A stretch of DNA of 36,282 bases from Clostridia bacterium. Its GTDB lineage: Bacteria; Bacillota; Clostridia; Oscillospirales; Acutalibacteraceae. The notes beneath the pieces were generated by a model. That model saw only the letters and a list, made by a program, of their open reading frames with translations, did not search any database and was not told the origin of the DNA. Positions within the stretch are counted from its first letter, which is position 1; each line of letters opens with the position of its first letter. The DNA is taken from assembly GCA_017454485.1 (NCBI GenBank), contig JAFTCX010000014.1, positions 1 through 36,282 on the forward strand, given 5' to 3'. Both the position numbers and the translations under genes were made by a program. This document shows positions 16,657 to 34,400 of this stretch, piece after piece.

Positions 16657-16687
16657 AGAATATTCCACCTTTGCTTTCTTATTTTAT

Positions 16688-17921: not shown

Positions 17922-19295
17922 TTATGCATGATGATTCAGCAAAATCGACGCGGTAAATACATCATCCCTGAACTGGAACGAGCAAGCCCCGTTGTAGCGT
18001 TTCACGATGTTGCGCATGGACGCAATGCCGACGCCGCTGCCCTTGTGTTTGAGAGAACGGAACGTACCGTCGTCCAACCTTTGCGGCTCAATACCGTAGC
18101 TGTTTTCAACGATGAGCGCCAGAGTGGTGTTGCCTGCGGTCGGTTTGACGAGATTGCCTGTAACGCGAATGAACGCGCCCGTGTTCATGTGGCTGCAGGC
18201 CTCCACCGCGTTTTCCAGCAGGTTGCCGAACAAAACGGTCAGATCCGGTTTGGTGACGAACAAGTTCTGCGGCAGATCAAGCTTGACGGTGTACCTGGCG
18301 CCCTGTTTTTCTGCCTGCTCGGCAAAATAAGCAACAATTGCGTTGACTGTTTCGTTTTGGCAGTATACCAAAGGGTATTCCAATGATTCCAGCGCCGGAT
18401 AGCTTTCCAAAAGCTGATCGAGCGCTTCAAGATCGCCGCTTTTGCGAATGTTGTGCAGCAAAAGCAAATGATGGCGCAGGTCGTGGCGCGATTGCCGGAT
18501 CTCATCCATACGGCTTTTCAGGTTTTCGTACTGCATATTTTGCACGGAAAGCATGTGCTTTTCTGCTTGCAGGAGCTGATTCTGTTCCTGCAATGCAACC
18601 AGTTTCACAACCGTGCGATAAATCAGAATAGACCCCAAATCAATCAGCAGCAGATAGCCTGTGTTCAGCGGGTCGAGCGCGTTTTCCAGGGAGGATTGCC
18701 CAGAGTTGTAAAAATGCTGCATCCAGATCAGATAGAACACGCCGGGGATCAGCCACAGGAAACGCCACATGTAAACTGCGGCGTCGGACACCTGCTCCGG
18801 CATCTCATCCTCTGTCGTTTGCAGCCGGATGACCCGAAAAATCAAGAAATACGTCAGCGGCAACAGGATGCACAATACCGGCAGCATCATCAGCGGATAG
18901 GTCCAGTGATAACCGATCAGCGCTTCTTCGGGAAAAAACAGACCTTCAAGACACTTGGACGCGACGACCGCAAGATTGCCAAGGTTCATCAGCACCAGCA
19001 CCGTAAAGACCAATTCACCCACCGGCGCACGCACGGCAAGGAAGATAAACCCGATATACAGGAGTGAAAACGCCACATCGATCAGTGGGTTCCCCGGCGT
19101 ATCCAAAAACATCCGCAGCGCATTGCCTGCAGTCATAATGAGTGTGACCGCCGCCAGCAACAAATAGGTGATACGTTTGGAGCAGCGCCATCTTTGCCGA
19201 AAGGAGAACAGCACGAGCACCATATAGGGAAACGAATTGAGAAAGGCATACAGCAGCGTTTCCCAAAATGTATAGGGCTTCTCTACAAAGAACAT
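17922..19295 (-). CDS. Membrane GHKL histidine kinase (AgrC/ComD-like, HPK10)
   Basis: 457 residues. Six or seven hydrophobic segments fill residues 10-225. A coiled region (LQEQNQLLQAEKHMLSVQN) follows, then the phospho-acceptor box SRHDLRHHLLLL near residue 270, the N box NLLENAVEAC and the G box GSGVGIASMRNIV. This is the layout of AgrC, ComD and BlpH, receptors for secreted peptides. It is the last gene of the cluster, 24 nt after the phosphatase gene with AAGGAGG before the ATG. No LytTR response regulator is present in the window. Its position behind a C39 peptide exporter suggests it may sense the exported peptide, which is inference. Confidence 0.85.
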   Translation of the reverse strand: MFFVEKPYTFWETLLYAFLNSFPYMVLVLFSFRQRWRCSKRITYLLLAAVTLIMTAGNALRMFLDTPGNPLIDVAFSLLYIGFIFLAVRAPVGELVFTVLVLMNLGNLAVVASKCLEGLFFPEEALIGYHWTYPLMMLPVLCILLPLTYFLIFRVIRLQTTEDEMPEQVSDAAVYMWRFLWLIPGVFYLIWMQHFYNSGQSSLENALDPLNTGYLLLIDLGSILIYRTVVKLVALQEQNQLLQAEKHMLSVQNMQYENLKSRMDEIRQSRHDLRHHLLLLHNIRKSGDLEALDQLLESYPALESLEYPLVYCQNETVNAIVAYFAEQAEKQGARYTVKLDLPQNLFVTKPDLTVLFGNLLENAVEACSHMNTGAFIRVTGNLVKPTAGNTTLALIVENSYGIEPQRLDDGTFRSLKHKGSGVGIASMRNIVKRYNGACSFQFRDDVFTASILLNHHA

Positions 19296-19319
19296 TTCAA
19301 AACCTCCTTATACAAGGCG

Positions 19320-21176
19320 TTAAACTTCTCCCAAATACCGAATACAAAGCATTGTGATATCGTCTGACTGCTCTGCGTCGGCGCTGAACGCTGTAACGGC
19401 CTCACTCACGCGGCTGCACAAAGCTTCCGCCATGCCGTTCATCCGGTTGCTTTCCGCATTTTCGCCGCTGATTGAGAGCAGTTTTTGCAGCCTCACTTCG
19501 CCAAACAATGCCCCGTCGGTATCCATTGCCTCCGTCACACCGTCTGTGTAAAGATACAAAGCATCTCCCTTTTGCATTTGCAGTGTATGTGTATGAAAGC
19601 GGATACTGTCCATGACCGCAAGCATCAGGTCTGGCTTGCGTTTGACATATTCTGCCTTACCGTCACGAACGAGGAGCGGAGGATTATGGCCGGCGTTTGT
19701 GAAACGTACAAGACCCGTTTTGAAATCCAGATAACCGAGCCATGCCGTAACGAACATCTCCGCCTCGTTGTTTTCGCAAAGCTTCTCGTTTGCAACCGTC
19801 AGCACCTCGTCGGGCGGCAGCCCGCGTTCCGCGAGATTTTTGATCAGGGTTTTCGCTGTCATCATAAACATGGCACCCGGGATGCTTTTGCCCGAGACAT
19901 CGGCAATCAAGAAGCCAAGCGTACTCTCATCAAGCAGGTAAAAATCATAAAAGTCGCCGCCAACCTCTTTCGCGGCACACATGGACGCGAACAGTTCAAA
20001 CTCCCTGTGTTCCGGGAACGCCGGAAACACAGAAGGAAGCATGGAGCTTTGAATCGTTTTTGCGGCCGAAAGCTCAACATCAATGCGCGCAGCAGCTTCC
20101 GCAATATACGCTTTCAGCCTGTCAACCGTTGCGTTAATGTCATCGGACAGCATACTGAATTCAAGGGTATCGCGCACCTCCACTTTTTCGTTCAGATTTC
20201 CCTCGGTGATTGCCGCCAGCGAACGGTTGACCGCAGAAAGGTTTTTGACCACCTGTTTTCTCAGCAGTACCTTCAAAGCGGCAAACAGAATGGAAAACAT
20301 CACAAGATCCAGCAAAAGCGTCATCAGAAGGGAAGCGTTTGTGCTTTCAGCAGCCTCACTTTTCGGCAGCACGCCAATGACAAAGAAGCCCTTCATGTAA
20401 TTCACAATGACAAAACTAGGTACGGAAAACACTTCCGTCTGCAGTTCCTTGTAAGTATAATCCTCATTATCGCAGATGGCAATACCGGTATCCTCGATAT
20501 TCTTTCCGGTGTAATGATTGTGAAAGCTGTTGATGACGGACATCTCCTGGTTGCAGATCAGAAGATAGCCTGTTTCTCCGATGTGGCGGTTGGTTGCCGC
20601 AGTCTGCATCTGAAGCAATATGGAGTCATAGTATTCATCTTCCGAAAACCCGATTTGTAAAAAACCGCTTCCGTCCGAAAAACGTTTTCCGCCATACTTC
20701 ATCAAGTGCGAATTGTCATAAGAGATTGCGGACATGTCCTGCACAAAAGTCTCCGTACTGCCATCCAAAAGCACCAGAAAGGCGGCGGACTGTTCCCCGG
20801 AGTGCATATCAAACCCAACATAGTCTGAATTCGTGGAATAGGTGATCATCCCGTTTTTATCAACAACGTTGATCTCCACGCCGTAATTGTTATAGAACGA
20901 TTTCAGCGTTCGCAGTAATTTTTCCGGATCGGCCGGATTTGCAGAAGGTATCGCGTGCGCAATCAGGTCTTCTGCAGTCGCAATCAATTCATCGTCCGTG
21001 ATCTCTTTGATGTCGTTGCTGATGTCTTCCACATGCTGACGCACAAGCGTCATATAATGCTTTTCGGAACGCTTTGTCAGGACAAAATAGGTAACAATTT
21101 CCGAAACCGCGCAAACGGCAACAAGAATGACAACCAGCCAGATCGTAATCACCGTTTCGATCTTCTTCTTTTTCAT
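19320..21176 (-). CDS. Membrane sensor PP2C (SpoIIE/RsbU-type) phosphatase
   Basis: 618 residues. One membrane segment at 8-33, an extracellular sensor of about 240 residues (dCache-like, with GFLQIGFSEDEYYDSI and HIGETGYLLICN), a second membrane segment near 285-310, a HAMP linker, then a PP2C domain from about 370. Metal-binding Asp lie in EVGGDFYDFY, FLIADVSGKSIPG and SDDITMLCI. In RsbU and SpoIIE this domain removes phosphate from a STAS antagonist, freeing it to bind its kinase. Both partners are encoded in the same cluster. Its start is 3 nt after the upstream ABC gene. An extracellular signal is expected but its nature cannot be read. Confidence 0.9.
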   Translation of the reverse strand: MKKKKIETVITIWLVVILVAVCAVSEIVTYFVLTKRSEKHYMTLVRQHVEDISNDIKEITDDELIATAEDLIAHAIPSANPADPEKLLRTLKSFYNNYGVEINVVDKNGMITYSTNSDYVGFDMHSGEQSAAFLVLLDGSTETFVQDMSAISYDNSHLMKYGGKRFSDGSGFLQIGFSEDEYYDSILLQMQTAATNRHIGETGYLLICNQEMSVINSFHNHYTGKNIEDTGIAICDNEDYTYKELQTEVFSVPSFVIVNYMKGFFVIGVLPKSEAAESTNASLLMTLLLDLVMFSILFAALKVLLRKQVVKNLSAVNRSLAAITEGNLNEKVEVRDTLEFSMLSDDINATVDRLKAYIAEAAARIDVELSAAKTIQSSMLPSVFPAFPEHREFELFASMCAAKEVGGDFYDFYLLDESTLGFLIADVSGKSIPGAMFMMTAKTLIKNLAERGLPPDEVLTVANEKLCENNEAEMFVTAWLGYLDFKTGLVRFTNAGHNPPLLVRDGKAEYVKRKPDLMLAVMDSIRFHTHTLQMQKGDALYLYTDGVTEAMDTDGALFGEVRLQKLLSISGENAESNRMNGMAEALCSRVSEAVTAFSADAEQSDDITMLCIRYLGEV

Positions 21177-21179
21177 GTG

Positions 21180-23372
21180 TTATTCCACCTCGTCAATGTC
21201 TATGCGCTGCCGTTGCACAAGCTCGGCAAAAATGCCGTTTTTTTCAATCAGCGTCTCGTAGTCGCCGTCCTCCATGATCTTTCCGCTGTCAAGCACAAGG
21301 ATGCGGTCACAGTTGCGGATCGTGGAAAGTCGGTGTGCGATAACGATGCGCGTACACTTCAACTTATCCAAAGCGTCGGATACCGCCTTTTGCGTCAGAT
21401 TGTCCAACGCGCTGGTCGCTTCGTCAAACATCAGAATCCGCGGCTTGGACACTACAGCACGCGCAATCATCAGCCGTTGCCGCTGCCCGCCCGAAATACC
21501 ACCGCTCCCTTCGGTCAGCAGCGTTGCCATTCCCATCGGCATTTGACGAATATCGTCTGCAATCCCGGCCGTTTCCGCCGCCGCCCAAGCGTCTTCCAGC
21601 GTCAAGCGCGGATTGGCGACGGTGATATTCGCGTATATATCGCCCTGAAAGAGCTTTCCGTCCTGCATCACAACACCGATCTTGCGCCGCAGAGAACGCA
21701 GGTCGATTTTGTTCAAATCTTTGCCGTCAAAGTAGATTGCTCCTTGCTGCGGTTGTTCAAAGCCCAGCAACAGCCGCAGCAGTGTTGATTTTCCGCAGCC
21801 GGTTTTTCCAACAACGGCAACATACTGTCCCGGACGAATTTTCAGGGATAGGTTATCAATAACCTTCGGCTGATCTGCCTGATAGCCAAAGGAAACATGG
21901 TTCAGCTCAATTCCTCCTGACAGCCGCTCAATCACCTGCTTGTCCAGTGCCACCTCCGGCAGAGTTGTTAAAATCGGCTCAGCCATCTCCATGACCGGAC
22001 GAATCTCGGCAATTGTGAGCGCAACACTTGAAAGGCTGAGAAAAGCGCCTGCGATCATGGCATAGGCCGTGTTGAAAGCATAATAATCCGAGACGGATAT
22101 CTCACTTTTGGCTGCAAAATAATAGATTGCCAATGTGCCGGCAAGCGACAAAGCAAGCGAGATTGCGCCGTTGAGCTGCAGCAACCGCGGCGGATGATAA
22201 GTGAGCTCCGCGCTTTTCGCATAAAGCTCGCCCCAACGTGCAAACACTCTTTTTTCCGAACCTGACAATCGAATCTTCTGTATACCGGAAATCATGGCAA
22301 AGCCCATGCCGCTCGCTTTTGCAGCAAGCGTCAACTTTTTTCGGCTGACTTTTATCTGTGCAAAAAAAGACGCCACTGAAAACAAAAAGGTCAGCCCCGA
22401 AACAATAGCCGTAGGCAGGATAAGCGCCCTTGCATAGACCACGATCTGTGAAAAGTAAATCAGGGAAAAGAGCGTCGTCAGTCCCGTTTCCAACACCGAC
22501 CGGGAAATCAGTTCGCAAAGCCTTCCGATCGCTTCCATGCGGGAAGAAAGATCGCCCGCGCTGTATTGCTTGAAAAACGAAGGCGGCAAAGACAGCACGC
22601 GCATCATAGATGCAGCCTGCACTGTGACGCTCAATTTTGTTTGGGAGCGCGACAACAGCAGCCCCCTCACTGCAGTTGCAATGTGGTGACTGAGCGTTGC
22701 CGAAAGGAGAAAAACAGCCGTTGTGATCAAAAAACGCATGCTGCCCGACGCAAGCACATCGGAAAACAGGATGCTGTTAATATAAGGCAGCAGCAAACCG
22801 ATCGCCGTCACAGCCAATGCAGCGGCAGTCGCGCTGACAACGTCCGCTTTGGAAAGGCAGGACGCCATAAAATGCAGAAGCTCCCGCATTCCGATCTCTT
22901 CGAGCGGAAACGGTTTGTAAAACACGAACGCTTCGTCTTCAAAAGCGGCAGCATTCTTTTTTGTGACGGACACATGCTTGCCTGTGCTTCTGTCTAAAAA
23001 ACAATAATGTGACACGCCTTTGGGAAGCAGAGCGACCACGCTGTTGTCTGCTTTTCTGACGCCGAGCATCGGTCCGATCGCATCTTGAAACCATTTTTCG
23101 CCGAGCTTCACGGTTCTGCGCATGATGCCGTTCGGACGCAGGAGGTATTCCAGTTGATCATCACGGCTTTTGATGCTCTCAGGAACCTCGCGCGTTTTGG
23201 CGTTATAAAAAGATAAGATCTCTTCCATCGCGTCCAGCGTCATACGCCTGTCATCCATAGCAGCATCCAGTTTTTTCCCCATGACAGCGCCGGCAATTTT
23301 CACAAAGGATTCATCAAAAACGTCCGCATCCGCCTGCATTCGCTGCCTGAGCTGTTCGTCGAACCAGCTCAT
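21180..23372 (-). CDS. NHLM-type exporter, second ABC transporter (no peptidase)
   Basis: 730 residues. A 150-residue N-terminal cytoplasmic region without a C39 peptidase (starts MSWFDEQLRQRMQADADVFD) is followed by a six-helix ABC exporter membrane domain at about 170-450 and an ATPase: Walker A GKTGCGKST, signature ISGGQRQR, Walker B RILMFDEATSAL, H-loop IAHRLS. This shape matches the second ABC subunit of NHLM bacteriocin export systems, which pairs with a peptidase-bearing subunit, here the upstream gene 17 nt away. The two probably form a heterodimer or act in series. Confidence 0.87.
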   Translation of the reverse strand: MSWFDEQLRQRMQADADVFDESFVKIAGAVMGKKLDAAMDDRRMTLDAMEEILSFYNAKTREVPESIKSRDDQLEYLLRPNGIMRRTVKLGEKWFQDAIGPMLGVRKADNSVVALLPKGVSHYCFLDRSTGKHVSVTKKNAAAFEDEAFVFYKPFPLEEIGMRELLHFMASCLSKADVVSATAAALAVTAIGLLLPYINSILFSDVLASGSMRFLITTAVFLLSATLSHHIATAVRGLLLSRSQTKLSVTVQAASMMRVLSLPPSFFKQYSAGDLSSRMEAIGRLCELISRSVLETGLTTLFSLIYFSQIVVYARALILPTAIVSGLTFLFSVASFFAQIKVSRKKLTLAAKASGMGFAMISGIQKIRLSGSEKRVFARWGELYAKSAELTYHPPRLLQLNGAISLALSLAGTLAIYYFAAKSEISVSDYYAFNTAYAMIAGAFLSLSSVALTIAEIRPVMEMAEPILTTLPEVALDKQVIERLSGGIELNHVSFGYQADQPKVIDNLSLKIRPGQYVAVVGKTGCGKSTLLRLLLGFEQPQQGAIYFDGKDLNKIDLRSLRRKIGVVMQDGKLFQGDIYANITVANPRLTLEDAWAAAETAGIADDIRQMPMGMATLLTEGSGGISGGQRQRLMIARAVVSKPRILMFDEATSALDNLTQKAVSDALDKLKCTRIVIAHRLSTIRNCDRILVLDSGKIMEDGDYETLIEKNGIFAELVQRQRIDIDEVE

Positions 23373-23389
23373 GGTCTGTCCCTCCTTCC

Positions 23390-25570
23390 TTATTCATTCG
23401 ATACCAGCGCTGTATAATAACCGCCGCGCCGATACAATTCTTCGTGTGTTCCGCGTTCCACAACCTCGCCATGATCCAAAACGATGATCTCGTCGCAGTC
23501 ACGGATCGTGGAAACACGGTGCGCAATCACAATGCAGGTGATCTCTCGTCGATTGATCGCATGAACGACCTCATGCTCCGTCTTCGCGTCGAGCGCCGAC
23601 GTCGCTTCGTCCAGGATCATAATGGTCGGATCGGCCGCAAGCACGCGCGCGATTTCCATTCGTTGGCGTTGCCCGCCGGAAAAGTTCTTTCCGCCTTCTG
23701 TGAGTCTTTCATTGTAACCGCCGTTGCGCTGCATAATGTCTTCGTGCAAGCTGGCGTCGCGGGCAGCCATGATCACTTCAAAATCTTCGATCGATGCATC
23801 CCACATCCGGATGTTGTTGGCAACCGTATCCTCAAAGAGAATCGTATCCTGATCAACAACAGCCAGCGAGCCCGTAAATACTGTGCGATTGATTGCGGTA
23901 ATCGGCTGGCCGTCAAACAGGATTTCTCCACTCCACGGCTGATACAACCCGGAAATCAGCTTGGCCACGGTCGATTTTCCGCTGCCTGACGCTCCGACGA
24001 TGGCCACCCTGCTGCCCGGTTCCAGAGAAAGGTTGAAGTTTTTGAGCAGCGGCGGCTTCAGCTTCGCATAGCCGAAGGTAACGTTTTTAAGCTCCACGCG
24101 GCCGGAAAGCTTGTCATAAGATACATCACCGTCAATGCGTTCATCCTCCGGAGAAAACGCTTCCGGGTATTCCATAACGTCTTCTACGCGTTCCATCTCC
24201 GCGCGCATTTCCTGCAGCGTCTTTCCAGCCTGCGCAAGTGCCTGGGTCGGCCTTGTCAAGCATTGCAAAAGCCCTTGAAACGCAAGAATCATACCGACAG
24301 TGAATTTGCCGTGAAAAGTCAGCACGACACCGAGCGTGATGATCAAAACTTCAGCAGCGGCGGAAACAACCGCCGGCAGCGCGCCCAATGTCTGATTCAG
24401 CCCGGTATAGCGCACGTTTTGCGTATTCGCGCCGGCCTGATAGCCTGCCCAGCGTTCGAAAAAGCTGTTTTCCGCACCGCCGGCTTTGATCGTTTCAATC
24501 ATTTCCATCCCCGCGACTGTCTGTCCGAACATCTTTGCTTCATCGCGCATCTGCAAGCGGATCAGGTTGACGCGTTTCTTTGAAATCAACTGATTAAGCA
24601 GCAAGTCCAAAGCAATCGACGCCACGCCGATCATCGTCAGCAGCACACTGTAGCGCAGCATGACCGCAAGATAAAACACCAGCATAAACAGGTTCAACAG
24701 CAGCGGCGCAAATACGTTGACCAGTCGTTCGGCGATCATCTCATTGGATTGCTGCCTGCGTAAAATATCACCAGCCGTGCGTTGCGAAAAAAATGCCATC
24801 GGCATACGCAGCACCTTCCATAAAAAGGTAGTTGTGGACACAACGGCAAGCCTTCCGTTCATACGCAAAGCGTAAACGGCTTTCATACAGGCGGCAATAA
24901 GTTCAATCAACGCAACGACAGCGAACAGCAGTAAAAACATGGAAAGCTGGGCGTCGCTTCTGCCTTCAAGAATCACATCCAGGAACACGCGCGAAAATAC
25001 CGGGTGGATCAGTTCGATGATTGCGGCAATCAATGAAACCAAAAACACGAAAAGCACGGCAGACTTTGCTTTATTCAGCCGTTTTTTCGCAAAAGAAAGC
25101 ATGCTCTTGGGTCTGCCGGATGGAACGAAGTCGGCGCTCGGCGCAAAATCCAAACAAACGCCTGTAAACGCTGCGTCAAACTCCTCCATGCTGACCCTGC
25201 AGTCGCCTCTTGCAGGATCATTGAGGTAGGCATAATTACCCTTGAATCCTTTTAGAACCACAAAATGGTTAAAATTCCAATGGACGATACACGGAAACCT
25301 TCCTTCGCGTTTCAACGTTTCCGGTTCAAAGCGCAAACCACGGGCGTCAAGGCCATAGTTTCGGGCGGCAAGCACCATATTTTTTGCGCTGGAGCCGTCT
25401 TTGGAAACGGCGCAATCCAGCCGAACCTGCTCAAGCGGCAGCCATTTCCCATAATAGGCAAGAATCATCGCTAACGAAGCGGCGCCACACTCCACCGTTT
25501 CCATCTGCAACACAACGGGAACCTTTGCAACGCCTTTGTTCTGCGGGCGACGCGCTGTTTTCATCTTCAT
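23390..25570 (-). CDS. NHLM-type exporter with C39 leader peptidase
   Basis: 726 residues. The N-terminal C39 domain has catalytic Cys28 (METVECGAASLAM), His102 (NFNHFVVLKG) and Asp118 (YLNDPARGD). It cleaves leaders after Gly-Gly at the inner face of the membrane. Six membrane segments follow at about 165-430, then the ATPase with GASGSGKST, FSGGQRQRMEIAR and TIMILDEATSALD. All key residues are present, so a working peptidase-exporter is expected. The best substrate in view is the 50-residue Gly-Gly peptide encoded five genes upstream in the same cluster. Confidence 0.92.
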   Translation of the reverse strand: MKMKTARRPQNKGVAKVPVVLQMETVECGAASLAMILAYYGKWLPLEQVRLDCAVSKDGSSAKNMVLAARNYGLDARGLRFEPETLKREGRFPCIVHWNFNHFVVLKGFKGNYAYLNDPARGDCRVSMEEFDAAFTGVCLDFAPSADFVPSGRPKSMLSFAKKRLNKAKSAVLFVFLVSLIAAIIELIHPVFSRVFLDVILEGRSDAQLSMFLLLFAVVALIELIAACMKAVYALRMNGRLAVVSTTTFLWKVLRMPMAFFSQRTAGDILRRQQSNEMIAERLVNVFAPLLLNLFMLVFYLAVMLRYSVLLTMIGVASIALDLLLNQLISKKRVNLIRLQMRDEAKMFGQTVAGMEMIETIKAGGAENSFFERWAGYQAGANTQNVRYTGLNQTLGALPAVVSAAAEVLIITLGVVLTFHGKFTVGMILAFQGLLQCLTRPTQALAQAGKTLQEMRAEMERVEDVMEYPEAFSPEDERIDGDVSYDKLSGRVELKNVTFGYAKLKPPLLKNFNLSLEPGSRVAIVGASGSGKSTVAKLISGLYQPWSGEILFDGQPITAINRTVFTGSLAVVDQDTILFEDTVANNIRMWDASIEDFEVIMAARDASLHEDIMQRNGGYNERLTEGGKNFSGGQRQRMEIARVLAADPTIMILDEATSALDAKTEHEVVHAINRREITCIVIAHRVSTIRDCDEIIVLDHGEVVERGTHEELYRRGGYYTALVSNE

Positions 25571-25580
25571 TCGGCACCTC

Positions 25581-26057
25581 TCAATTCAACAGGAAAGATA
25601 GCGGCGAAGTACTGCTTTTCAGCACATAGACACTGTAGTAGCCGTTCGGCAGACCGGCGTGTGCAAAGGCACAATAAACCCAGGCGTCCTCAGACAAATT
25701 TGAAAGATGAAGCGTGTATTCATCCATCACTTGCCCTGCCTTCTGCGGTCGCTCGTTGACAGAATCCAAAATGAACTCCATTCCATCCACACGCACAACT
25801 GTACCGGCATTGACCTCTGCGTCCATGTCATCCTCGCAAATAAAACAGGAAAGCGTGCCGTTTTCGCAATAAGCAGCACAGAAAAAGCCTGTGTCCATGT
25901 GGCCGAAAAAGCCCCACGCGCAAAGGCCTGCCAAAAAGCAAATGAGCAGCGCCAGCACCAGCCAAACGCTGACATTGGCGACCTTGATATAATCATTTAA
26001 TTGCTCCGGTGAAGTGATTTTGTCTAAGCTTTTCTTTCTGAAAATTCCGTTGCTCAT
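25581..26057 (-). CDS. Short HlyD-like secretion protein of the NHLM exporter
   Basis: 158 residues. The start (IFRKKSLDKITSPEQLNDYI) matches NHLM-system HlyD proteins, followed by one membrane helix at about 32-52 (VWLVLALLICFLAGLCAWGF). Beyond it is a short beta-rich outer part (DDMDAEVNAGTVVRVDGMEF) without the long coiled coil or second lipoyl half of usual HlyD proteins. It lies 11 nt behind the anti-sigma kinase gene and 10 nt before the C39 exporter. The N-terminus makes the assignment; the short form suits a single-membrane cell. Confidence 0.75.
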   Translation of the reverse strand: MSNGIFRKKSLDKITSPEQLNDYIKVANVSVWLVLALLICFLAGLCAWGFFGHMDTGFFCAAYCENGTLSCFICEDDMDAEVNAGTVVRVDGMEFILDSVNERPQKAGQVMDEYTLHLSNLSEDAWVYCAFAHAGLPNGYYSVYVLKSSTSPLSFLLN

Positions 26058-26068
26058 AGTCTGCCTCT

Positions 26069-26485
26069 TTATCGTATCGTTTTTTGTATGGTGAATCTGT
26101 TTTGCCCGTCTTCATAACAATAAGCAACAGCATCCATACTGTTTTTTACAATATATATACCCAGCCCACCGACCTGCCGTTCGTTGCCCGGCAAATCAAG
26201 CGCCGGCTCCTTCGCCCGCAAGGGATTAAAGGCTTTTCCCTTGTCAATAAAAGTCAAATGCAAGCAAAGCGGCGATTCGGTGAACTGCGTGCGCACCATT
26301 ACACTGCCTTTGCCGCCGTCATAGGCGTATTTTGCAATATTTACAAAAATTTCTTCCGCCGCAACATCGAGCTGCACCCTGGTTTTGCGCGGGCAATCGC
26401 ACAAGGCAAGCTGCTCGTTCAAAAAGTCAATCAAGATGTCAGTGCAGTCGGTCGCTGCCTCAAGCACAAGCTCTTTTGCTTCCAT
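26069..26485 (-). CDS. RsbW/SpoIIAB-like anti-sigma kinase
   Basis: 138 residues of the HATPase fold. The N box is AAEEIFVNIAKYAY, the G1 box FIDKGKAFNPL and the G2 box VGGLGIYIVKNSMD. Such kinases hold a sigma factor (or another target) inactive and phosphorylate a STAS antagonist with ATP. The antagonist gene is directly upstream and a matching phosphatase lies four genes downstream, so the partner-switching set is complete except for its target. The ribosome site GAGGAG precedes the ATG. No sigma factor gene is in the window. Confidence 0.88.
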   Translation of the reverse strand: MEAKELVLEAATDCTDILIDFLNEQLALCDCPRKTRVQLDVAAEEIFVNIAKYAYDGGKGSVMVRTQFTESPLCLHLTFIDKGKAFNPLRAKEPALDLPGNERQVGGLGIYIVKNSMDAVAYCYEDGQNRFTIQKTIR

Positions 26486-26542
26486 TGATTTCTCCTCGGA
26501 TCATTTCGTTCGGCACAAAACGCAAACGCGATTGTCTCCGGT

Positions 26543-26839
26543 TTACTCCAAATTGAACACTTCAACCAGATTGGTCATTTCAAACAGATCCATTGCTTCT
26601 TCATTGGCGTTTCTGAGCACCATTCTTCCCTGCTTATGCATCACCTTATGCGCCGAAATCAGCACACGGATGCCCGCCGATGAGATGTAGTCGACGTCTG
26701 CAATATCAACCACAAGCAGCTCGTTTTCTGCAACACTGCATTTCAGCTCCGCTTCCAACTGCGGCGCAGTTTTAATATCGAGCCTTCCGCTGAGGATCAG
26801 CGTCAGTTCCCGTCCGTTTTGCTTTTTTTCAATCGTCAT
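26543..26839 (-). CDS. STAS-domain anti-sigma factor antagonist
   Basis: 98 residues covering a whole STAS domain (SpoIIAA/RsbV type). DYISSAGIRVLISAHKVM holds the phosphorylatable Ser and the helix that contacts the kinase; GRLDIKTAPQLEAEL is the first strand-helix unit. Unphosphorylated it would bind the RsbW-like kinase and free its target. GGAGGG lies 6 nt before the ATG. It follows the subtilase gene by 24 nt and precedes the kinase gene by 57 nt. Confidence 0.9.
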   Translation of the reverse strand: MTIEKKQNGRELTLILSGRLDIKTAPQLEAELKCSVAENELLVVDIADVDYISSAGIRVLISAHKVMHKQGRMVLRNANEEAMDLFEMTNLVEVFNLE

Positions 26840-26863
26840 ATTTGCCCTCCGTTCTGATCGGTT

Positions 26864-28225
26864 TCAAGCGATCAGTGATGTAAATAATGCGCGTATGCGC
26901 GCAAGGATGCTGTTCAGCCACTGCAGCAGGAACTGAAACGGGCCCGTCTTCGCAGGCTCCGTCTCCCCTGCATTGTTAGAATCCTGAGGCGCTGCCTCCT
27001 GCAGATTGTCCTGTGTATGGTCTTGCGGATCGTCCTGCGAATCTGTTTGATGCGAATCTGCTTGCTGCGAATCGGCGTGTGTACCGCCGGTTTGCGTTAC
27101 GGCAGCAAAAACATCCAGTACTGCTCCGTTTTTCACATAAGGCTCCAGCGTTTCGATTTGCTTGGCATTGGTCAAAACTGTGTTCTTTGTCTGCATAAGC
27201 GTATTGTCCGTCAGACAGGAATGGACAAGTGCCAAAGACGCCGCAACAAACGGCACGGCCATAGACGTGCCGGTCATGTACTCATAGCCGCTCTTACTTG
27301 TACTCGTGCTGTAAATCTGTGTACCCGGAGCTGCAATGTCCACAAGATTGGCACTGTAGTTCGAACTGTAATGCAGCGTTCCGTCACACTGCAGGTTGCC
27401 GACGACGACCACATTATCCAAGCCAAAGCACGCCGGAAAGCGGTAGGATTCGTCAAGGTTGACTCCCTTGCTCTCTCCGTTGCAGGCAGGTACTACAAAC
27501 AGCATATTCGCGTTTGCCATCGCATCATACAGTTCACGGTTATACTTTTTGACGCCGAGGCTCATGCTGCAAATATCCGCCCCGTTTGCTTCGGCATATT
27601 GAATGCCCTTGATGAAATCGGCGATGGTGCCGCCGCCGTTGTTGCCGCCAACGACTTTGATCGGCATGATTCTGACTGATGAAACGCCGCCCGCGACGCC
27701 CACGATCTCATTCGGATTGTTTGCGCACATCAAACCGGCGCAGTGCGTGCCGTGCGCGTCCTCGGAATAGCTTCGAGCATTATACAGAACATTGTTGTCG
27801 TTGTAAAAGTTCCAGCCATGGACATCGTCAACAAAACCGTTCTCGTCATTGTCAATGCCGTCGTCGGGAATCTCGTCTTCATTTGTCCAAATCGCCTGTG
27901 CAAAATCTGGGTGATCGATCTTTACGCCGGTGTCAAGCACCGCAACCGTCACGGTGCGTTCATACGTGATCGGCTCGCTGCGCAGCGGCAGAATGTTGAT
28001 ATCCACACCGGCGATCGACGTCACAAAGCCGATTTCGCCGAAGGCCGAGCCGATGTTGTCTTCATAATAAAAACTTCCGTCATTGAAAAATGCCCAATCC
28101 TTTTTCACCGGCTCATCGGCGGCGTATACCGTCAAAGAAGCAAAGCCGAGCGAAAGCAGCAAAACGGGAAGCAGCCCGATCGCAAGCGCAGATCGGGCTT
28201 TTTTCTTGAAGTGCAAGCGTTTCAT
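26864..28225 (-). CDS. Secreted subtilisin-like serine protease (S8)
   Basis: 453 residues. A Sec signal ends near residue 36 (TVYAAD) and a short 55-residue pro-region follows. The catalytic triad is complete: Asp98 (AVLDTGVKIDHPDF), His158 (DAHGTHCAGL) and Ser321 (TGTSMAVPFVA), with oxyanion Asn249. A Gln/Asp/Thr-rich linker (about 385-425) leads to an amphipathic tail (LQWLNSILARIRALFTSLIA), with no LPXTG. The ATG directly follows the TAA of the Gly-Gly peptide gene and has no clear ribosome site, so translation is probably coupled to the peptide. It could mature the peptide after export or process the giant surface protein; the substrate is unknown. Confidence 0.92.
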   Translation of the reverse strand: MKRLHFKKKARSALAIGLLPVLLLSLGFASLTVYAADEPVKKDWAFFNDGSFYYEDNIGSAFGEIGFVTSIAGVDINILPLRSEPITYERTVTVAVLDTGVKIDHPDFAQAIWTNEDEIPDDGIDNDENGFVDDVHGWNFYNDNNVLYNARSYSEDAHGTHCAGLMCANNPNEIVGVAGGVSSVRIMPIKVVGGNNGGGTIADFIKGIQYAEANGADICSMSLGVKKYNRELYDAMANANMLFVVPACNGESKGVNLDESYRFPACFGLDNVVVVGNLQCDGTLHYSSNYSANLVDIAAPGTQIYSTSTSKSGYEYMTGTSMAVPFVAASLALVHSCLTDNTLMQTKNTVLTNAKQIETLEPYVKNGAVLDVFAAVTQTGGTHADSQQADSHQTDSQDDPQDHTQDNLQEAAPQDSNNAGETEPAKTGPFQFLLQWLNSILARIRALFTSLIA

Positions 28226-28378
28226 TTACACTTTATCTTTGATTTTATCATCAATCGGCTGTTCGGGAACGCGCTCATACTGTGCAAACGGGTTTGCGCC
28301 GCCGGAGACCTGATCCAACTCATCGAGATCAAGCTTCTTTTTTTCTTCCGGGATAACAGTTTCTTTTTTGTCGTTCAT
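28226..28378 (-). CDS. Double-glycine leader peptide, likely exporter substrate
   Basis: 50 residues from the ATG at 28378, behind GAAAGGAAAG; an in-frame ATG at 28411 lies upstream but has no ribosome site. The leader is hydrophilic and ends LDLDELDQVSGG, the classic L-x-x-[DE]-L-x-x-[IV]-x-GG pattern cut by C39 peptidases. Cleavage after Gly27 would release a 23-residue core starting ANPFAQYERVPEQP and ending in a charged DKIKDKV. The core has no Cys, Ser or Thr, so lanthionine or thiazole chemistry is not possible, and no modifying enzyme is nearby. It lacks the hydrophobic stretch of pore-forming bacteriocins and could be a signal peptide. The C39 exporter is encoded in the same cluster. 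Confidence 0.75.
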   Translation of the reverse strand: MNDKKETVIPEEKKKLDLDELDQVSGGANPFAQYERVPEQPIDDKIKDKV

Positions 28379-28413
28379 GGTTCTTTCCTTTCTGCCCGAA
28401 CGGGCGGTCATGC

Positions 28414-28441
28414 CCTGCGTCCCCGGGAATAGGGACGCAGG
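28414..28441 (-). other. Perfect 10-bp hairpin between the giant gene and the peptide gene
   Basis: CCTGCGTCCC (28414-28423) pairs with GGGACGCAGG (28432-28441), 8-nt loop. There is no T-run on either strand, so it is not a standard terminator. It could protect or separate the downstream peptide-exporter mRNA from the giant-protein message. A second small stem (GCCCG/CGGGC, 28394-28405) follows before the peptide ribosome site. No convincing promoter is seen in 28442-28496. Confidence 0.5.
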
Positions 28442-28496
28442 ATCGATTTTACGTTGATCTTGACGATACAGTCTGCTCTTTGAACTGCATCATCAA

Positions 28497-31400
28497 TTAC
28501 TTCTTGAACGGATTCTTAAGAGCGACCGCAGTCTTGATGGAGTTGAATGTTTTCTGCACAAAGTGAACGACCGTGTGAAGTACCTTCACAAGGAAGCGAA
28601 CGAGGAAGAACGAGTGATTCTCGTTTTTCTCGTACCAATCACACAGACTGCAGCGGAACTCGTTTGCTTCTGCAGAATCATCAGTCGACTTGCTCGTGCC
28701 CTTGACAGATACCGTGATCGCAGTCGCGGCACTGTACGGATACGCATACGCCGTTACGGTGGTTTCGCCGCCGCCGACCGCCACGAGCTTGCCGTCTTCA
28801 ATCGTAACAACGCTGTTGTCGGAAGAAACGAACATCGGGCTGACGTCGTTAAGGAAGTCGGATGTCGCGTAGTCGAGCGCAACGTCAAGCACATCGCCTT
28901 CTGTCATTGCCACATTTTTGCCGTCGTTGATTGTCAGACCTGCCGGCTGCTGCATAAACACGGAGTCGCTTTCGGAGGCATAGGTTTTCTCATTGTCAAC
29001 AATTCTGGTCAGCACGTCAATGAAGCCGTACTTCTCAAACGCCGTTGCCGGCACGTTCAGTTGAATTGTGAAGTTCGCGCTCTCGCCGGGTTCCAGACTG
29101 AGCATTTCGAAGCCGAGAATCGGATCGTCAATGCCGTAGTTCGCTGCGGAGAGATACGGGCCGTTGAATGCAAGCTCCAGCTTGTCGCCGTCTTTGGACT
29201 TCACGTTGCCGGTGTTGGTAAGGATAACATCGGTGTAGAACGCGCCGTCCATGCCCTGATAGCTGTCGTTGGCGTCGATTCGGTAATCCGGTGCGGAGAT
29301 AAAGGTTTCGCCGTCCTTGGTGTTGACGCCCTGAACATCGTTTTCCTTCACGGAAACATAGATGCTGCTGCCGACAGTGTAGGCATTCGCCTTGAACGTG
29401 AATCTGTACTGCGCAGTCTGCGTCGGGATCAGGCTCTCAACGTGATTATAGGTTTCCAGCAGCTTGGTGGAACCGTTGGCCGCTTTTCTGTAGATGCTCG
29501 CGGTGAAGCCGTTCTTCGTTGCAGTCAGACCGGTGTTTTCAAACGTGACGGTCACGTCCACATCCTGTCCTTCAACCGGCGTCAGATCGGAGTATTCGAT
29601 CTTTGTCGCTTCCACAGAGCAATACGGCTCAAACACGCTCGAGCAAAGCTGCAGATCGTTGGTCGTCATCGTTTCGGTATCCATGTCGAATTTGTTGAAC
29701 ACCATGACCATCTGGCCGTCATCCGCGATCGCAAGCGCGGGCTCGTCGCAGAACATGCCGAAGTCGGTAAGCTGATTCGCGTCGGACCACGTCTTGTTTG
29801 TATCATCCTCGCCGTCGCCGTTCAAGTCCTGAATCTCGCTTTCGATCATTGCCGCCGCAAAGATCTCCTGATTCGGGTCGCTCGTGCCGTCGGAGGTGTT
29901 TTGCACCCAGATGACATACAGGTTGTCATCGTTGTCCACGGCCACCTGATAGTCGCTGTAAGACGCATGGGTGTTTTCCGCCTTCATGTAGGTCGTGACC
30001 TGGTTGATGCGGAACATGTAGCTCGCCTTTGCCTGTTCTTCCGGCGTCAGCGCGTCGAATTCGTCATCCGTCATGCCGCTGTCCGGCTCTTCTTCGTCGA
30101 ACTTCTCAATAGCGGAATCCAGAATCTGGCCGTTCTCATCCACGCCGTACTTCACAAGGCTTGTCACGTCGATGTACTTGAGTAAGTTGTCGCTCATCCA
30201 GAACAAATAGGTCGTGCCGTCTTCGTCGCTGCCGTTGCGCACAAGCTGCGGCATGGCGTCAGCCAGTGCATCATCCGTGATACGGATGGGCACATAAGTC
30301 GAACGGGTCTCGAAGTCATAAAGCTGCAGGAACAGGTCGCGATCCTCGTCGGTGTCCGCGTTCATATCCTTGTCGATCGTGTAAGCAAACACGCCGATGC
30401 CGTTGTAGCCGATGGCATGGAAGTCCGCGATCAGCGGGTCTTCCCTGTTGATGTCTTCGTCCTTGATCGGCGAAGAGAGCAACCGCTGGCCGCCCAAGGC
30501 TGCAAGCTGCGCCGCATACGCTTCGTCGCTGACGGAATCGGGCTTTTCATTTGGCGCATATTCCGTTGTCAGCCAGCCCTTGCCGTTTTCATACACACGG
30601 TAGGCAATGACGGAATAGGTGTTGCCGGAAGCGTTCATCGGGTTGGCAAGATCGACCGCTTCGGCAGTCGTTTCGGTATCCTCCGCCGACTTGATGAAGT
30701 AGACGTTGTAATCGCCGCTGGCGCTGTCATAGACCGCATAGGGCAGCGCGTCATAGTAATCATCGTTCGTCAACTGCACGATCGCGTTTTGATCGATGGC
30801 GCTTCCCGCCGCAAGATCGGCCTTGGCAACGGTCAGGCAGAAGACCTCCTGCGCTTTCAGGTAGTTCGCTTCATAGTTTTCATCCGACAGTCTGCCTCTT
30901 TCGCGCGCGGGATCGCTGGAGATCCAGGTGATGATCACATTGTCACCCGCATCGGCAACGCTCGGCTGGAAGTCGGCGGTGTTGTCCGTCTGGATGATGA
31001 CCGGGTCGCTGTAAACGCCGTCTTTGAAGACGGAGTAGCTCAGCGCGGTGCGCTCGGAGTCGCTGCGGTGTTTGTCGTCCTGCAGGAAGAGCATCAGCGT
31101 GCCGTGCTCGCCCATTTCGATGAGTGTTGCATCCGGGCGGTCATAGCCGTCGGAAAGCAGGGTAGCGGTGTTCTTCAGCTTGTAGGTCGCCATTGTGTTC
31201 ACTTCGTCCGGCGCATAGGATTTCACCTTGCCGGTCCACTTCGACGGCGTATTGTCGCGTGCTTTCAGCTCGTAGTTGATCGCCGTCGGCTCTTCGATAC
31301 GCAGCAGTTCTTCAAGATCGTCAACCTCGTCGTTCTTTGCGGGCGCTTTCTTGCCGGTGTTGCGTTCCGTGCCCTTCAGAAGATCCTTCAGTTGTGTCTC

Positions 31401-34400
31401 ATTCTTATCCTTCAGTTCGGCATACTGCTTGAGGAGCTTGTAATCGAAGCGCGCAAGCTCGAAGGTGAACGGGATCGTGAACAGCAGCAGGTCGATCCAA
31501 ATGCCTGCGCTGACACCCGCCGAGAAACCATAGGGATCAAAGTAGCTGTTGTAATAGGAGAGCATCGGCTCCATGATGAACTCAAAGTCAAACTGTACGC
31601 CGCCGCGCACGCCGAGCGTGCCGCAGATGCCGACGCCGCAGTAAACCTGAACGGTTGCGGCAATGGCGCTTGAAAGGTCAAAATGCAGCGTCGTGGTGAG
31701 GTCGTGCGTGGTGGTCAAGAACGTATCGTAGTCCGGGCCGAGGTTATCGGCAGTCGTGACTTCGTCCTTGGTGGAAACGCTGGTTGAAGCGCCGATGTTG
31801 GCGGAAACCGTCAGTTCACCCGAAACGCCGAAGTAGCACGGGATGAAGACCACGGGCAGCAGCGAATACCAGGCAAGGGAGAAATTCCCCTTGAGGCCAA
31901 TCATGATACCACCGCCGTTGCAAATGAATTTTTGGGTGGTTTCTGTGCTTCCTTTCTGCCGAACCGTCTTCATTGCAAAGTCGAGATAGAAGCCAACGCA
32001 GGGCATGAGACCCCATTTCGACGAACCCATCGAAGCCGTTCGTTTTGCGGCGCTCTTGTAGCCGTTGTATTTGGCGTCGTTGCGGCGCGTCATGATGCTG
32101 TTTGCAGCCGTTCTGAACGAGCCCTTGAGGTTGCCGATTTTTTTCAGGAAGTTGCCGTAATTCACGCCGTCGTCGGCAAGATCTTCGTTGTCGGAGCCGA
32201 TGGAGGTTGCGTCAAAGAACAAGTCCATACCGGCGGAGATGCGCGTGCCGACAACGTTTTTATGGTCGTCATAAAGCTGTGAAATCTTCAAACTGACCGG
32301 GCCGAAATTCATGTTCGCGTTGAAATTGCCGACCAGCGGCAGACCGGAAAGGCCCTCGAGCGCCGCAACGTCCAGCGTATGCACCGGCGGATCGGAAAGT
32401 CTGCCTTCAATCGCAAGCGTATAACCTGTGTTCACGGGCGCATACGGAGTTTGCTCGAGCGCTTCTTTTTGTTCCGCCGTCAAGGTTACAACCGTTTTTC
32501 CGTCCTGAAGCGTCTGCGTGTCGGAAAGCCTGCTCTCATTGGTAACAACCTGAACATAAATCAAGTCGCCTTGATCGTATTCGTTGATTTCGCTGCCGTC
32601 GCTCATGAACGTTTTGGTCATGGTGTAATCATTGCCCGAAATGCCGGACTTTACGCCCGGAATAACGGTCTTTTCCTCAAAGGTTTTGGCGTCCAGAATC
32701 AGGAAATTGACTTTCTTGATCCCATAGGTTGCACCGGACGGAAGATTCACACCGACTTTAATGGTCGTTGGCAAATCGTTCATCATGACGTTTTTGGAAA
32801 CGGCGGTTCCGTTCGTTGTCTCAATCCCTGTGATCTGCGGGCCTGCGGCGCTGTTCACATTGATTTTCATGACGCCTTGATCTGTGATGATGGCGTTCAC
32901 AACAGACGTGCCGTTGCTGACCTTCGCGGTTGTGCCCGAAAGGTTGATCGCAATGTCTTCGTTTTGCGAAACATTCCCGCCGGCAATCGTCAATCTGGTG
33001 TTGAGCTGCGGGTTGCTGCCGAAGGTCACGGTTTTGCCTGCCACGGTGACAGATTCCACCGGACGGAAGGCCGGAGTCTGCACAACGCCTGTTTCGTCGG
33101 GCGCGGCAAACAGTCCGGAAAGAGTCAGATAGCCGTCTTTCGCGGGAAGCACCGGATTTCCGGTCTGTTTGCTGTTGAGCAACCAGTTGTCATAATACAG
33201 CTTTGCCTTAACCGAAACATATTTGCTGGTGGATTCTTTTCCGGCATAAAGATAGAGCACATTCAAAACGCGCTTTTCTTTCGCCTCATAGTCAAACAGG
33301 TTCGTCTGGTAATAGTTTGCGTCGTTCGTTTCCTTCCAAACGGGCTGATAACCGGCTTTCGGCGTCACGGCAAACTGGAATTTCTGCCCCGCGGCAAGAT
33401 TAACATCCTTGCCGTTTGACTTATATTTCGTGCCGACCACAGTGATCAGATAATAATCGCCCGAACGTTCCGCCGCGTTGATGTTCGCGTCAGTCAGGAT
33501 ACCTGTATGTTCAAACTTTGCCAGATCGTCCTTGTGAATCTTGACGCGGATGATGTTGTTGTTCTCCGAATACAGCGGCGTCAGATAGATTCTATCAATG
33601 GTGGTGCTCAAATACAGCGAGCAGGTTCCGTTGCGGAGCACCCGCTCATCCGTCACGTTTTTACCGAGGTTCTTGTCGTAATATTCAATGCGCACCTTGC
33701 TCGGAATATAATCACTTGCCGTCGAATTGATCGACAGCGTCAGCGTGTCGCCGCAATGATAAGTCAGCTCTTTGTTGGAAGCATTCGACGGTGTGCCGAC
33801 ATTGATTGCGCTGCCGTTGATGCAAAGCGTGCCGGTGAAGGTATTGGTGTCTGCGTTGGCTGTGATCGTGTTCGGCTTGACCGTTACTTTTGTATTGATC
33901 GTGCTGAAAATGGGCTGCAGCTTCACATCGCCGTAGAGTCTGCCGTTGCCGCGGTCAAGGAAATCCACATAGTTGTGATATTGGCTGATGAAATAGTTGT
34001 TGACCGTCAGCGTGATCGTGCTCGAACCGTTTGAGCTGTAATCATAGCCTCCGTCTGCGGCGATGACCGCGCTTTGACCTTTGCTGTTCACGATCTTAAG
34101 GCCCGTGAGGTTAACACCCTCTGTGCCTGTGCTTCTGATCACAATCTTATCGCCTCTGTAAACAATGCGATATCTGTCGTTGCCGGAATCGACGATCTCG
34201 GCGCCCGGCGTCACCGATCTCGTGTTGCTGCCGTTGCCGGTTAAAAACTTCACCGAGTCCGCGGTTTTCAGGCTGATTTTGAACGGGCGCAGGATCGGTG
34301 TCAGCTCACCGACATCCATACGCAGCTTTTTACCGCTGTCTTTATAATTCCATACGTCAAAATATATTCTTTGAGCTTCAATCTGTCCGAAGTTCGCTTC

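What the first reader, a model, noticed from the sequence alone, without database searches (positions are those of the whole stretch)
17922..28378. Peptide exporter fused into one transcript with a full partner-switching module
Nine same-strand genes with gaps of 0-57 nt combine five parts: a Gly-Gly peptide, a secreted protease, a STAS antagonist with its kinase and sensor phosphatase, an NHLM-type C39 exporter with a second ABC subunit and HlyD protein, and a GHKL peptide-receptor-type kinase. Seen: gene order, spacing, motifs. Known: C39/ComA exporters work with HPK10 receptors in ComCDE and Blp systems; PP2C-STAS-RsbW sets control sigma factors. Inference: a peptide signalling or toxin system whose output goes through partner switching. 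I know of no described system with this exact set.
Basis: partly seen in the sequence, partly recalled or inferred. Interest (0 to 1): 0.85.

Follow-up and report, generated by a model that had tools for sequence, protein, structure and literature searches.

The report
Giant surface protein with exported micropeptide
A bacterial genome, probably of the Clostridia, carries one gene array that joins a phosphatase-kinase switch to a peptide pump, a protease, a giant surface protein and a conserved tiny peptide, and the same parts recur together, in shuffled order, in distant relatives, which points to an undescribed cell-surface system.

Summary
The nine genes are real, same-strand, 0-57 nt apart, with intact catalytic motifs. 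The exporter is the NHLM type: both ABC subunits pass NCBI's curated cut-offs. Its link with partner switching recurs: of 80 related exporter loci 45 carry a STAS, RsbW or PP2C gene (23, 18 and 18 of the 35 loci with about 10-kb flanks); within 1.5 kb it is 28 of 80 against 0 of 24 other ABC exporters. It is common, not obligatory: 10 of 35 have none of the three.

A tenth gene, for a 2509-aa surface protein, lies just upstream of the peptide gene, and the peptide's exported 23 residues (NPFA..RVP.QPIDD type) are conserved. A peptide-only search found 7 new places; in 6 of 6 testable ones (five genomes) a homologous giant gene is adjacent, 25-56 nt away; 5 of the 6 genomes carry a C39 exporter, against 5 of 117 relatives. 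I read it as a surface system: giant by Sec, micropeptide by the C39 exporter, meeting outside, with partner switching as frequent control. The peptide's action is inferred, not shown. My ten searches of the held library found no paper on it.

The parts
28497..36026 (-). giant secreted surface protein, 2509 aa: signal-like N-terminus, Calx-beta domain at 294-395, long conserved middle, amphipathic C-terminal tail where relatives have S-layer homology domains
   Evidence: translation; Calx-beta 64 bits; alignment A6 with 9 relatives, 25-31% identity; SLH in relatives; tails
28226..28378 (-). micropeptide precursor, 50 aa: leader ending LDLDELDQVSGG, then ANPFAQYERVPEQPIDDKIKDKV
   Evidence: exported part 30-52% identical to that of nine relatives; leader just under the cut-off of TIGR01847 bacteriocin_sig (14.2 vs 15.7 bits)
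26864..28225 (-). secreted S8 subtilase, 453 aa, amphipathic C-terminal tail
   Evidence: 159 bits; catalytic motifs; subtilases of L196 and L198 carry an SLH domain, that of L199 does not
26543..26839 (-). STAS antagonist, 98 aa, phosphorylatable-serine motif YISSAG
   Evidence: motif SSAG (ASAG in L088) in 37 of 37 relatives in which it can be read, ORFs of 135 aa or more left out
26069..26485 (-). RsbW-like serine kinase, 138 aa
   Evidence: HATPase_c_2 63 bits; nucleotide-binding boxes in all 26 aligned relatives
25581..26057 (-). short HlyD-like accessory protein of the exporter, 158 aa
   Evidence: TIGR03794 N-terminus only; alignment A3 of 58; A3 matches in 29 of 394 genomes of the order
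23390..25570 (-). NHLM ABC1: C39 peptidase-permease-ATPase
   Evidence: 911.8 bits, over cut-off; catalytic residues
21180..23372 (-). NHLM ABC2: permease-ATPase
   Evidence: 713.4 bits, over cut-off
19320..21176 (-). membrane PP2C (SpoIIE-type) phosphatase, 618 aa, with an unclassified N-terminal part and a HAMP-like stretch
   Evidence: SpoIIE 173 bits; invariant metal-site Asp columns in A2; no sensor family found
17922..19295 (-). GHKL sensor kinase, no LytTR gene beside it
   Evidence: HATPase_c_5 56 bits; H-box RHDLRHH; LytTR genes elsewhere
28379..28496 (-). two strong RNA hairpins between giant and peptide genes, no U-tract on this strand
   Evidence: -47.6 kcal/mol, z -5.3, folded 28379-28499

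Best explanation
The array encodes a cell-surface assembly system of Clostridia. The giant protein leaves through Sec and is fixed to the surface. The 50-aa precursor is cut after its double glycine by the C39 domain and pumped out by the NHLM exporter as a 23-residue micropeptide. Because the two leave by different routes they can meet only outside; there the micropeptide most likely binds the giant protein and completes, activates or locks it. The subtilase, present in some of the loci, matures one of the two. The PP2C-STAS-RsbW switch decides when this is made: an outside signal makes the membrane phosphatase dephosphorylate STAS, which then captures the RsbW-like kinase and frees its target; in relatives that target is probably the ECF-type sigma factor encoded in the same array, in the window one encoded elsewhere. 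Shown: gene content, intact motifs, conserved co-location, conserved exported core, giant-peptide adjacency, genome-wide co-occurrence with a C39 exporter. Inferred: Sec export and anchoring, binding to the giant, role of the subtilase, sigma output, cotranscription.
For: Peptide-only profile search (A4) found 7 non-training places at E<1e-6 in six genomes, out of 394 order and 391 class genomes; in 6 of 6 testable places (five genomes; two places are in G786) a homologous giant gene lies 25-56 nt away, the 7th contig ends. From the exporter side 8 loci have a giant (window, L074, L190, L191, L196-L199); 7 of 7 testable have a double-glycine peptide with a 22-23-residue core next to it, L196 and L198 being close kin. 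Of the 6 genomes found by peptide alone 5 have a full-length C39 exporter, against 5 of 117 non-own relatives (Fisher p 7e-6; 3e-5 without the 33 congeners), also on another contig (G348) or megabases away (G632). Exported core 30-52% identical to the window's, leader 26-41%, giants 25-31%. Same parts in permuted order: window; L191+L254; L249; L197+L253; L199. Switch genes within 1.5 kb: 28 of 80 exporters vs 0 of 24 controls. Giant and core distances correlate (Mantel r 0.63).
Against: No binding, secretion or expression was tested. The distance correlation is also expected from plain shared descent of linked genes. The core of L254 lacks the RVP/PID motif and those of L253 and L074 show only part of it, so the motif holds for one main group. 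The window GHKL kinase fits a pheromone reading. No giant has a segment resembling the peptide. No STAS, RsbW or PP2C hit lies in the stretches held around the pair in L196, L198, L248/L265, L250, L251/L266 and L252, and L247 has only a 66-bit STAS hit 5 kb away, so the switch is not part of the core. Sigma and RsbW genes go together only slightly (RsbW in 6 of 9 sigma loci, 12 of 26 others).
Confidence: 0.45

Rival explanations
1. Peptide signalling: the 23-mer is a pheromone exported by the C39 exporter and sensed by the GHKL kinase, with the partner switch and giant protein as regulated output.
For: GHKL kinase in the array; LytTR regulators in 27 of 80 and GHKL in 8 of 80 loci; peptide short and hydrophilic.
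Against: The window kinase is an orphan: 8 of 8 loci with this kinase have a LytTR gene, the window has none, and the genome's two LytTR genes sit with their own GHKL genes. The core is conserved across families, unlike most pheromones (recalled). No GHKL hit lies in the stretches held around the peptide in L249 or L252.
Confidence: 0.2
2. Bacteriocin or modified peptide: the exporter secretes an antimicrobial, as its NCBI name implies, and the giant protein is only a linked surface protein.
For: NHLM exporter over cut-off; related loci carry double-glycine peptides (32 of 80) and radical SAM genes (19 of 80).
Against: The window core has no Cys, Ser or Thr, is hydrophilic and conserved; no modifying enzyme among the window proteins scanned; one member of this peptide family in the genome.
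Confidence: 0.12
3. The STAS protein controls the pump directly, as MlaB does for its ABC ATPase (recalled), rather than a sigma factor.
For: In 10 of 25 loci with a switch gene within 100 nt upstream of the exporter the nearest one is STAS, and in L036, L060, L080, L083, L096, L098 and L111 no RsbW or PP2C was found in the stretch; weak MlaB match of the window STAS (24.5 bits, cut-off 90).
Against: The serine motif is kept also in those STAS proteins, which argues for phosphorylation control; the MlaB score is far under its cut-off.
Confidence: 0.12
4. Neighbours without shared function: a horizontally gained island in which exporter, switch and surface protein merely travel together.
For: GC 0.50-0.52 in the array against 0.57-0.59 in six of seven 2-kb bins to the left; full-length exporter in 0 of 33 other genomes of the genus; TnpV gene at 17372-17746; order varies between loci.
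Against: Same parts recur in permuted order in other families; 28 of 80 vs 0 of 24 control; the giant-peptide pair stays together when the exporter is elsewhere.
Confidence: 0.11

Closest known systems
NHLM/NHLP exporter systems (TIGR03793-TIGR03797; Haft, Basu, Mitchell 2010, PMC2887384; passages found by term search seen)
   Same: Both ABC subunits pass the curated cut-offs; double-glycine peptide; clustered export genes.
   Different: No NHLP or Nif11 leader in the window peptide, no modifying enzyme seen, shortened HlyD, conserved instead of hypervariable core, giant surface protein and partner switch; 'stas', 'sigma' and 'anti-sigma' do not occur in that paper.
BtrU-BtrV-BtrW partner switch of Bordetella type III secretion (review PMC8256260; passages seen)
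   Same: PP2C, STAS and RsbW-like kinase tied to a secretion system.
   Different: Different secretion machine; there, per the review, BtrV acts on translation and BtrU/BtrW on secretion; here the output is unknown.
RsbU-RsbV-RsbW / SpoIIE-SpoIIAA-SpoIIAB sigma control (recalled)
   Same: Same three activities with intact motifs.
   Different: No sigma gene on the window's contig; ECF-type sigma in 22 of 80 related loci.
ComCDE / Blp / Agr peptide signalling (recalled)
   Same: C39 exporter, double-glycine peptide, GHKL kinase.
   Different: No LytTR partner in the array; peptide paired with a giant surface protein.
MycP mycosin, subtilase of type VII secretion (TIGR03921)
   Same: Secreted subtilase beside a secretion system; 108 bits.
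   Different: Far below the cut-off 278.75; no type VII parts seen.
SLH-anchored surface proteins
   Same: Relatives of the giant carry SLH domains.
   Different: Window giant and subtilase have amphipathic tails instead; profile positions about 421-2151 of the giants match no solved structure at E<=1.

Membership tests
NHLM exporter | ABC1 over TIGR03796 cut-off | tested here: met
   911.8 vs 853.3 bits
NHLM exporter | ABC2 over TIGR03797 cut-off | tested here: met
   713.4 vs 709.4 bits
NHLM exporter | HlyD subunit over TIGR03794 cut-off | tested here: not met
   29.8 vs 156.2 bits, N-terminal 42 positions only
NHLP / Nif11 precursor | leader matches TIGR03793 or Nif11 | tested here: not met
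   neither is listed for the window peptide
Double-glycine (C39) peptide | leader with GG before the core, gene beside a C39 exporter | tested here: met
   LDLDELDQVSGG; TIGR01847 14.2 bits, just under 15.7; C39 catalytic residues
Partner-switching module | PP2C, STAS with phosphorylatable serine, RsbW with ATP boxes | tested here: met
   (sequence only)
Sigma partner switch | target sigma factor in the cluster | tested here: not met
   none of the 11 sigma-70 region-2 matches in the genome lies on this contig
ComCDE/Blp-type signalling | LytTR regulator beside the GHKL kinase | tested here: not met
   two LytTR matches in the genome, on other contigs with their own GHKL genes
ComCDE/Blp-type signalling | peptide activates the kinase | not testable with these tools
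   needs bench work
Giant-micropeptide pair (defined here) | giant homolog adjacent to a double-glycine peptide with an F..RVP..PIDD-type core | tested here: met

The most novel reading that the evidence does not exclude
A two-route surface assembly system: a 22-23-residue peptide, sent out through its own C39 exporter, is a dedicated extracellular partner of a giant Sec-exported surface protein, so that assembly is possible only outside the cell, and a serine phosphorylation switch that senses the outside sets its timing. I know of no peptide exported by a C39 transporter that serves as a structural partner of a surface protein (recalled).
Probability: 0.35. Interest if true: 0.88.

Novelty: new variant of a known kind. 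Interest (0 to 1): 0.72.

Why it matters
NHLM exporters are named bacteriocin exporters, but in this clostridial branch at least one cargo is a conserved micropeptide wedded to a giant surface protein. If the inference holds, it gives double-glycine peptides a third role beside killing and signalling, explains a set of uncharacterised giant surface proteins, and offers an output for PP2C-STAS-RsbW modules whose targets are unknown. The recurrent ECF-type sigma with its small leader-like partner makes the question of what such switches control directly testable.

Tried and rejected
Sigma factor in the window: none; none of the genome's 11 sigma matches has an f13 hit within the 1.5 kb held on each side. 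Solo STAS as a degenerate, MlaB-like regulator: not favoured, the serine motif is kept. Peptide mimicking part of the giant: no. Sensor part of the PP2C: no Pfam or clear PDB relative apart from the HAMP region and the phosphatase. Short HlyD: no solved relative (best E 0.06). Peptide outside the class: of 398 phylum genomes (which include the own genome and class members) only the own genome scores under 1e-6; four others have weak matches, mostly to the leader. Plasmid search with ABC1: the 5000-record limit was reached, all under 60% identity. Terminator between giant and peptide: hairpins but no U-tract on that strand. The giant of L139 is not a homolog of the window giant (E 0.006, tail only). 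The giants of L190 and L191 match weakly (68 and 59 bits); L191 was followed to its end (L254), L190 is cut by the contig.

Biases: the 80 loci were the best 80 of 563 confirmed, picked by closeness to the exporter alignment; they hold near-duplicates (L045/L047, L093/L105, L113/L114), and 45 have shorter flanks. In one search, 27 of the 30 places were examined (own, G072 and G076 had been seen) and 5 dropped before the count (L187, L189, L204, L205, L207: no single ABC1 frame over 700 bits); L187 and L189 do carry switch genes, L204 and L205 weak STAS hits. Family profiles were built from the same loci, so scores of their own members are by construction. Background densities are my hand sums over the tables, with rounded genome sizes. 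A4 was built from peptides found beside exporters, so only its 7 non-training hits count as independent; the line at E 1e-6 was set after seeing the list (next hits 7e-5 to 6e-4, mostly leader matches). The 117 relatives are drawn nearer to the window than the genomes found by peptide. The 24 control loci are the other ABC exporters returned, two or more cut by contig ends.
Full report
The observation. Nine minus-strand genes lie at 17922-28378 with gaps of 0-57 nt, each starting with ATG. Both ABC subunits pass NCBI's curated cut-offs. All catalytic motifs looked for are intact. The 'HlyD' gene is a short form of 158 aa, which proves typical of this exporter branch (family hit in 78 of 80 loci; 66 ORFs of 137-180 aa; profile matches in 29 of 394 genomes of the order, 20 of 169 genera). 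The window is a whole contig of a 2.42-Mb, 90-contig genome.

Is the exporter-switch link real? A scan of genome contigs with an alignment of five exporters gave 80 loci, nearly all from uncultured Clostridia-type genomes by their titles, 58-65% identical. By profiles made here, 39 of 80 carry STAS, 26 RsbW, 31 PP2C; 45 of 80 have at least one. Of the 35 loci of 22 kb or more (about 10 kb on each side) the numbers are 23, 18 and 18; 10 of 35 have none. By the tables these families give about 64 (STAS), 131 (HATPase_c_2) and 70 (SpoIIE) matches in about 55.7 Mb of 25 related genomes (my sums), so 0.025-0.05 is expected per 22 kb. At matched +-1.5 kb, 28 of 80 exporter loci but 0 of 24 other ABC exporters have a switch gene (Fisher p 2e-4). 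In 25 of 80 loci a switch gene ends within 100 nt upstream of the exporter genes on the same strand. On the exporter tree the trait is spread over the branch with at least 7 changes (quick tree). A second sample, found in 394 genomes of the order by the short HlyD, gave 22 counted loci (27 examined): STAS 10, RsbW 7, PP2C 9, at least one in 12.

The switch looks functional by sequence: the serine motif of STAS is kept in 37 of 37 relatives in which it can be read, solo STAS proteins included, and the RsbW boxes in 26 of 26. Many loci also hold an ECF-type sigma gene (22 of 80), in 20 of 22 with a 60-70-aa gene, f13, beside it that ends like a C39 leader (LSDDDLE.VSAAG or AAGG) and often overlaps or abuts the sigma start. 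L044, L068 and L042 hold LytTR, GHKL, STAS, PP2C, RsbW, exporter, f13, sigma and double-glycine peptides in one stretch. So the window is a version without its own sigma and LytTR genes.

The gene before the peptide, 28497-36026, codes for a 2509-aa protein with a signal-like start and a Calx-beta domain. In L074, a distant relative, a homologous giant (27% over 1428 aa) is likewise followed by a double-glycine peptide and, further on, the exporter. In the order sample giants lie by the exporter in 6 of 22 loci and a subtilase in 3. Between subtilase and giant in L196, L198 and L199 sits a small gene whose exported part matches the window peptide: window ANPFAQYERVPEQPIDDKIKDKV; L196 and L198 DDPFANTDRVPEQPIDDELRNDG; L199 GNPFARLPRVPTQPIDEDMRNKG.

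Independent test. A profile of these four peptides, which knows nothing of giants, was run over 394 genomes of the order and 391 of the class. At E<1e-6 it found the training genomes and seven further places in six genomes: G171, G348, G649, G467, G786 (two), G632. In six of the seven, in five genomes, a giant homologous to the window's (260-771 bits) lies directly beside the peptide gene; the seventh contig ends. From the exporter side 8 loci had a giant, and 7 of 7 testable ones have a double-glycine peptide gene next to it. Of the six genomes found by peptide alone, five carry a full-length C39 exporter at E<1e-150, two of these five over the family cut-off (G632, G467), in two cases not linked to the pair (G348 on another contig, G632 megabases away). 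Among 117 non-own relatives five do: Fisher p 7e-6, or 3e-5 if the 33 congeners are left out. In 398 genomes drawn from the phylum only the own genome scored under 1e-6. The pair is thus rare: 6 of 394 and 5 of 391 genomes, own genome included in both.

Order. Window: giant, peptide, subtilase, STAS, RsbW, HlyD, ABC1, ABC2, PP2C, GHKL. L191/L254: HlyD, ABC1, ABC2, giant, peptide, STAS, a 552-aa gene, a PP2C gene whose end looks RsbW-like. L197/L253: STAS, PP2C, RsbW, HlyD, ABC1, ABC2, giant, peptide. L249: STAS, HlyD, ABC1, ABC2, f13, sigma, subtilase, peptide, giant. L199: PP2C, HlyD, ABC1, ABC2, f13, sigma, subtilase, peptide, giant. L265/L248 and L266/L251: a lipoprotein-like gene, a HlyD-like gene (both by eye), a more distant ABC1-ABC2, giant, peptide, without switch hits. 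L196 and L198: exporter and subtilase-peptide-giant diverging, without switch hits. The same parts in permuted order argue for a functional unit; exporter, giant and peptide are the core and the switch a frequent regulator.

Surface anchoring. Pfam finds SLH domains in 4 of 4 complete relatives of the giant that were scanned (L198, L248, L249, L252); five more (L247, L251, L253, L255, L074) end in SLH-like sequence by eye and L254 in a sortase-like tail. The window giant ends in an amphipathic tail instead. Subtilases of L196 and L198 have an SLH domain, that of L199 none; the window subtilase ends in an amphipathic tail. So the tail sits where relatives have a surface anchor.

Mechanism. I propose that the giant and the micropeptide leave by separate routes and meet outside. 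The exported core is 30-52% identical to the window's over nine relatives, the leader 26-41%, the giants 25-31%; F and D of the core are invariant in 10 and R, V, P, I in 90%. Core and giant distances correlate (r 0.63, none of 20,000 permutations as high), though shared descent alone can do that. The peptide's action, the subtilase's target, the sigma output and cotranscription are inference. Lower G+C of the array, absence of the full-length exporter from 33 of 33 congeners and a TnpV gene next to it suggest horizontal gain.

Literature. Ten searches of the held library listed no paper on this combination, judged by titles and abstract starts; the lists showed 20 of 127, 20 of 36 and 10 of 98. 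Two papers on NHLP systems and one STAS review were seen as term-search passages only. Most subscription papers and all bioRxiv-only preprints are outside that library.

Noticed in passing
window 15172-16668 (LRR), 26864-28225, 28497-36026; L139:332-6055, L141:11952-12866, L149:8264-9535 of the same genome: Several secreted proteins of this genome end in an amphipathic aromatic-basic tail (such as LNFFERLIQMILNFFAKLFGR), which stands where relatives carry SLH domains and may be a surface anchor. A crude rule gave 5 of 22 signal-bearing and 2 of 42 other long ORFs, but it missed several tails seen by eye and two of the five look like membrane proteins, so it is no real test.
   Followed up: partly
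L044:11696-11917 and 19 more; L249:7266-7466: f13: a 60-70-aa gene with a FDYQ.F-like motif and a C39-leader-like end, overlapping or next to an ECF-type sigma gene in these exporter loci; perhaps an anti-sigma that reports on the exporter.
   Followed up: partly
L139:7509-9265, L142:8878-10645: Partner-switch modules outside exporter loci hold a STAS-APH kinase-like fusion; in L139 an HD_4 protein is beside it, in L142 a similar one by eye.
   Followed up: no
L083, L098, L100, L106: Exporter loci with double-glycine leaders in front of LysM domains, suggesting C39 export of wall-binding proteins.
   Followed up: no
L110:5600-9481, L037:6815-10742, L058:16493-20846: Long arrays of double-glycine precursors with varied, often Cys-rich cores; L110 and L037 also have a radical SAM gene.
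   Followed up: no
window 17372-17746: TnpV gene ending 175 nt short of the last gene of the array, with a G+C drop to 0.42-0.45 at 14-18 kb.
   Followed up: no
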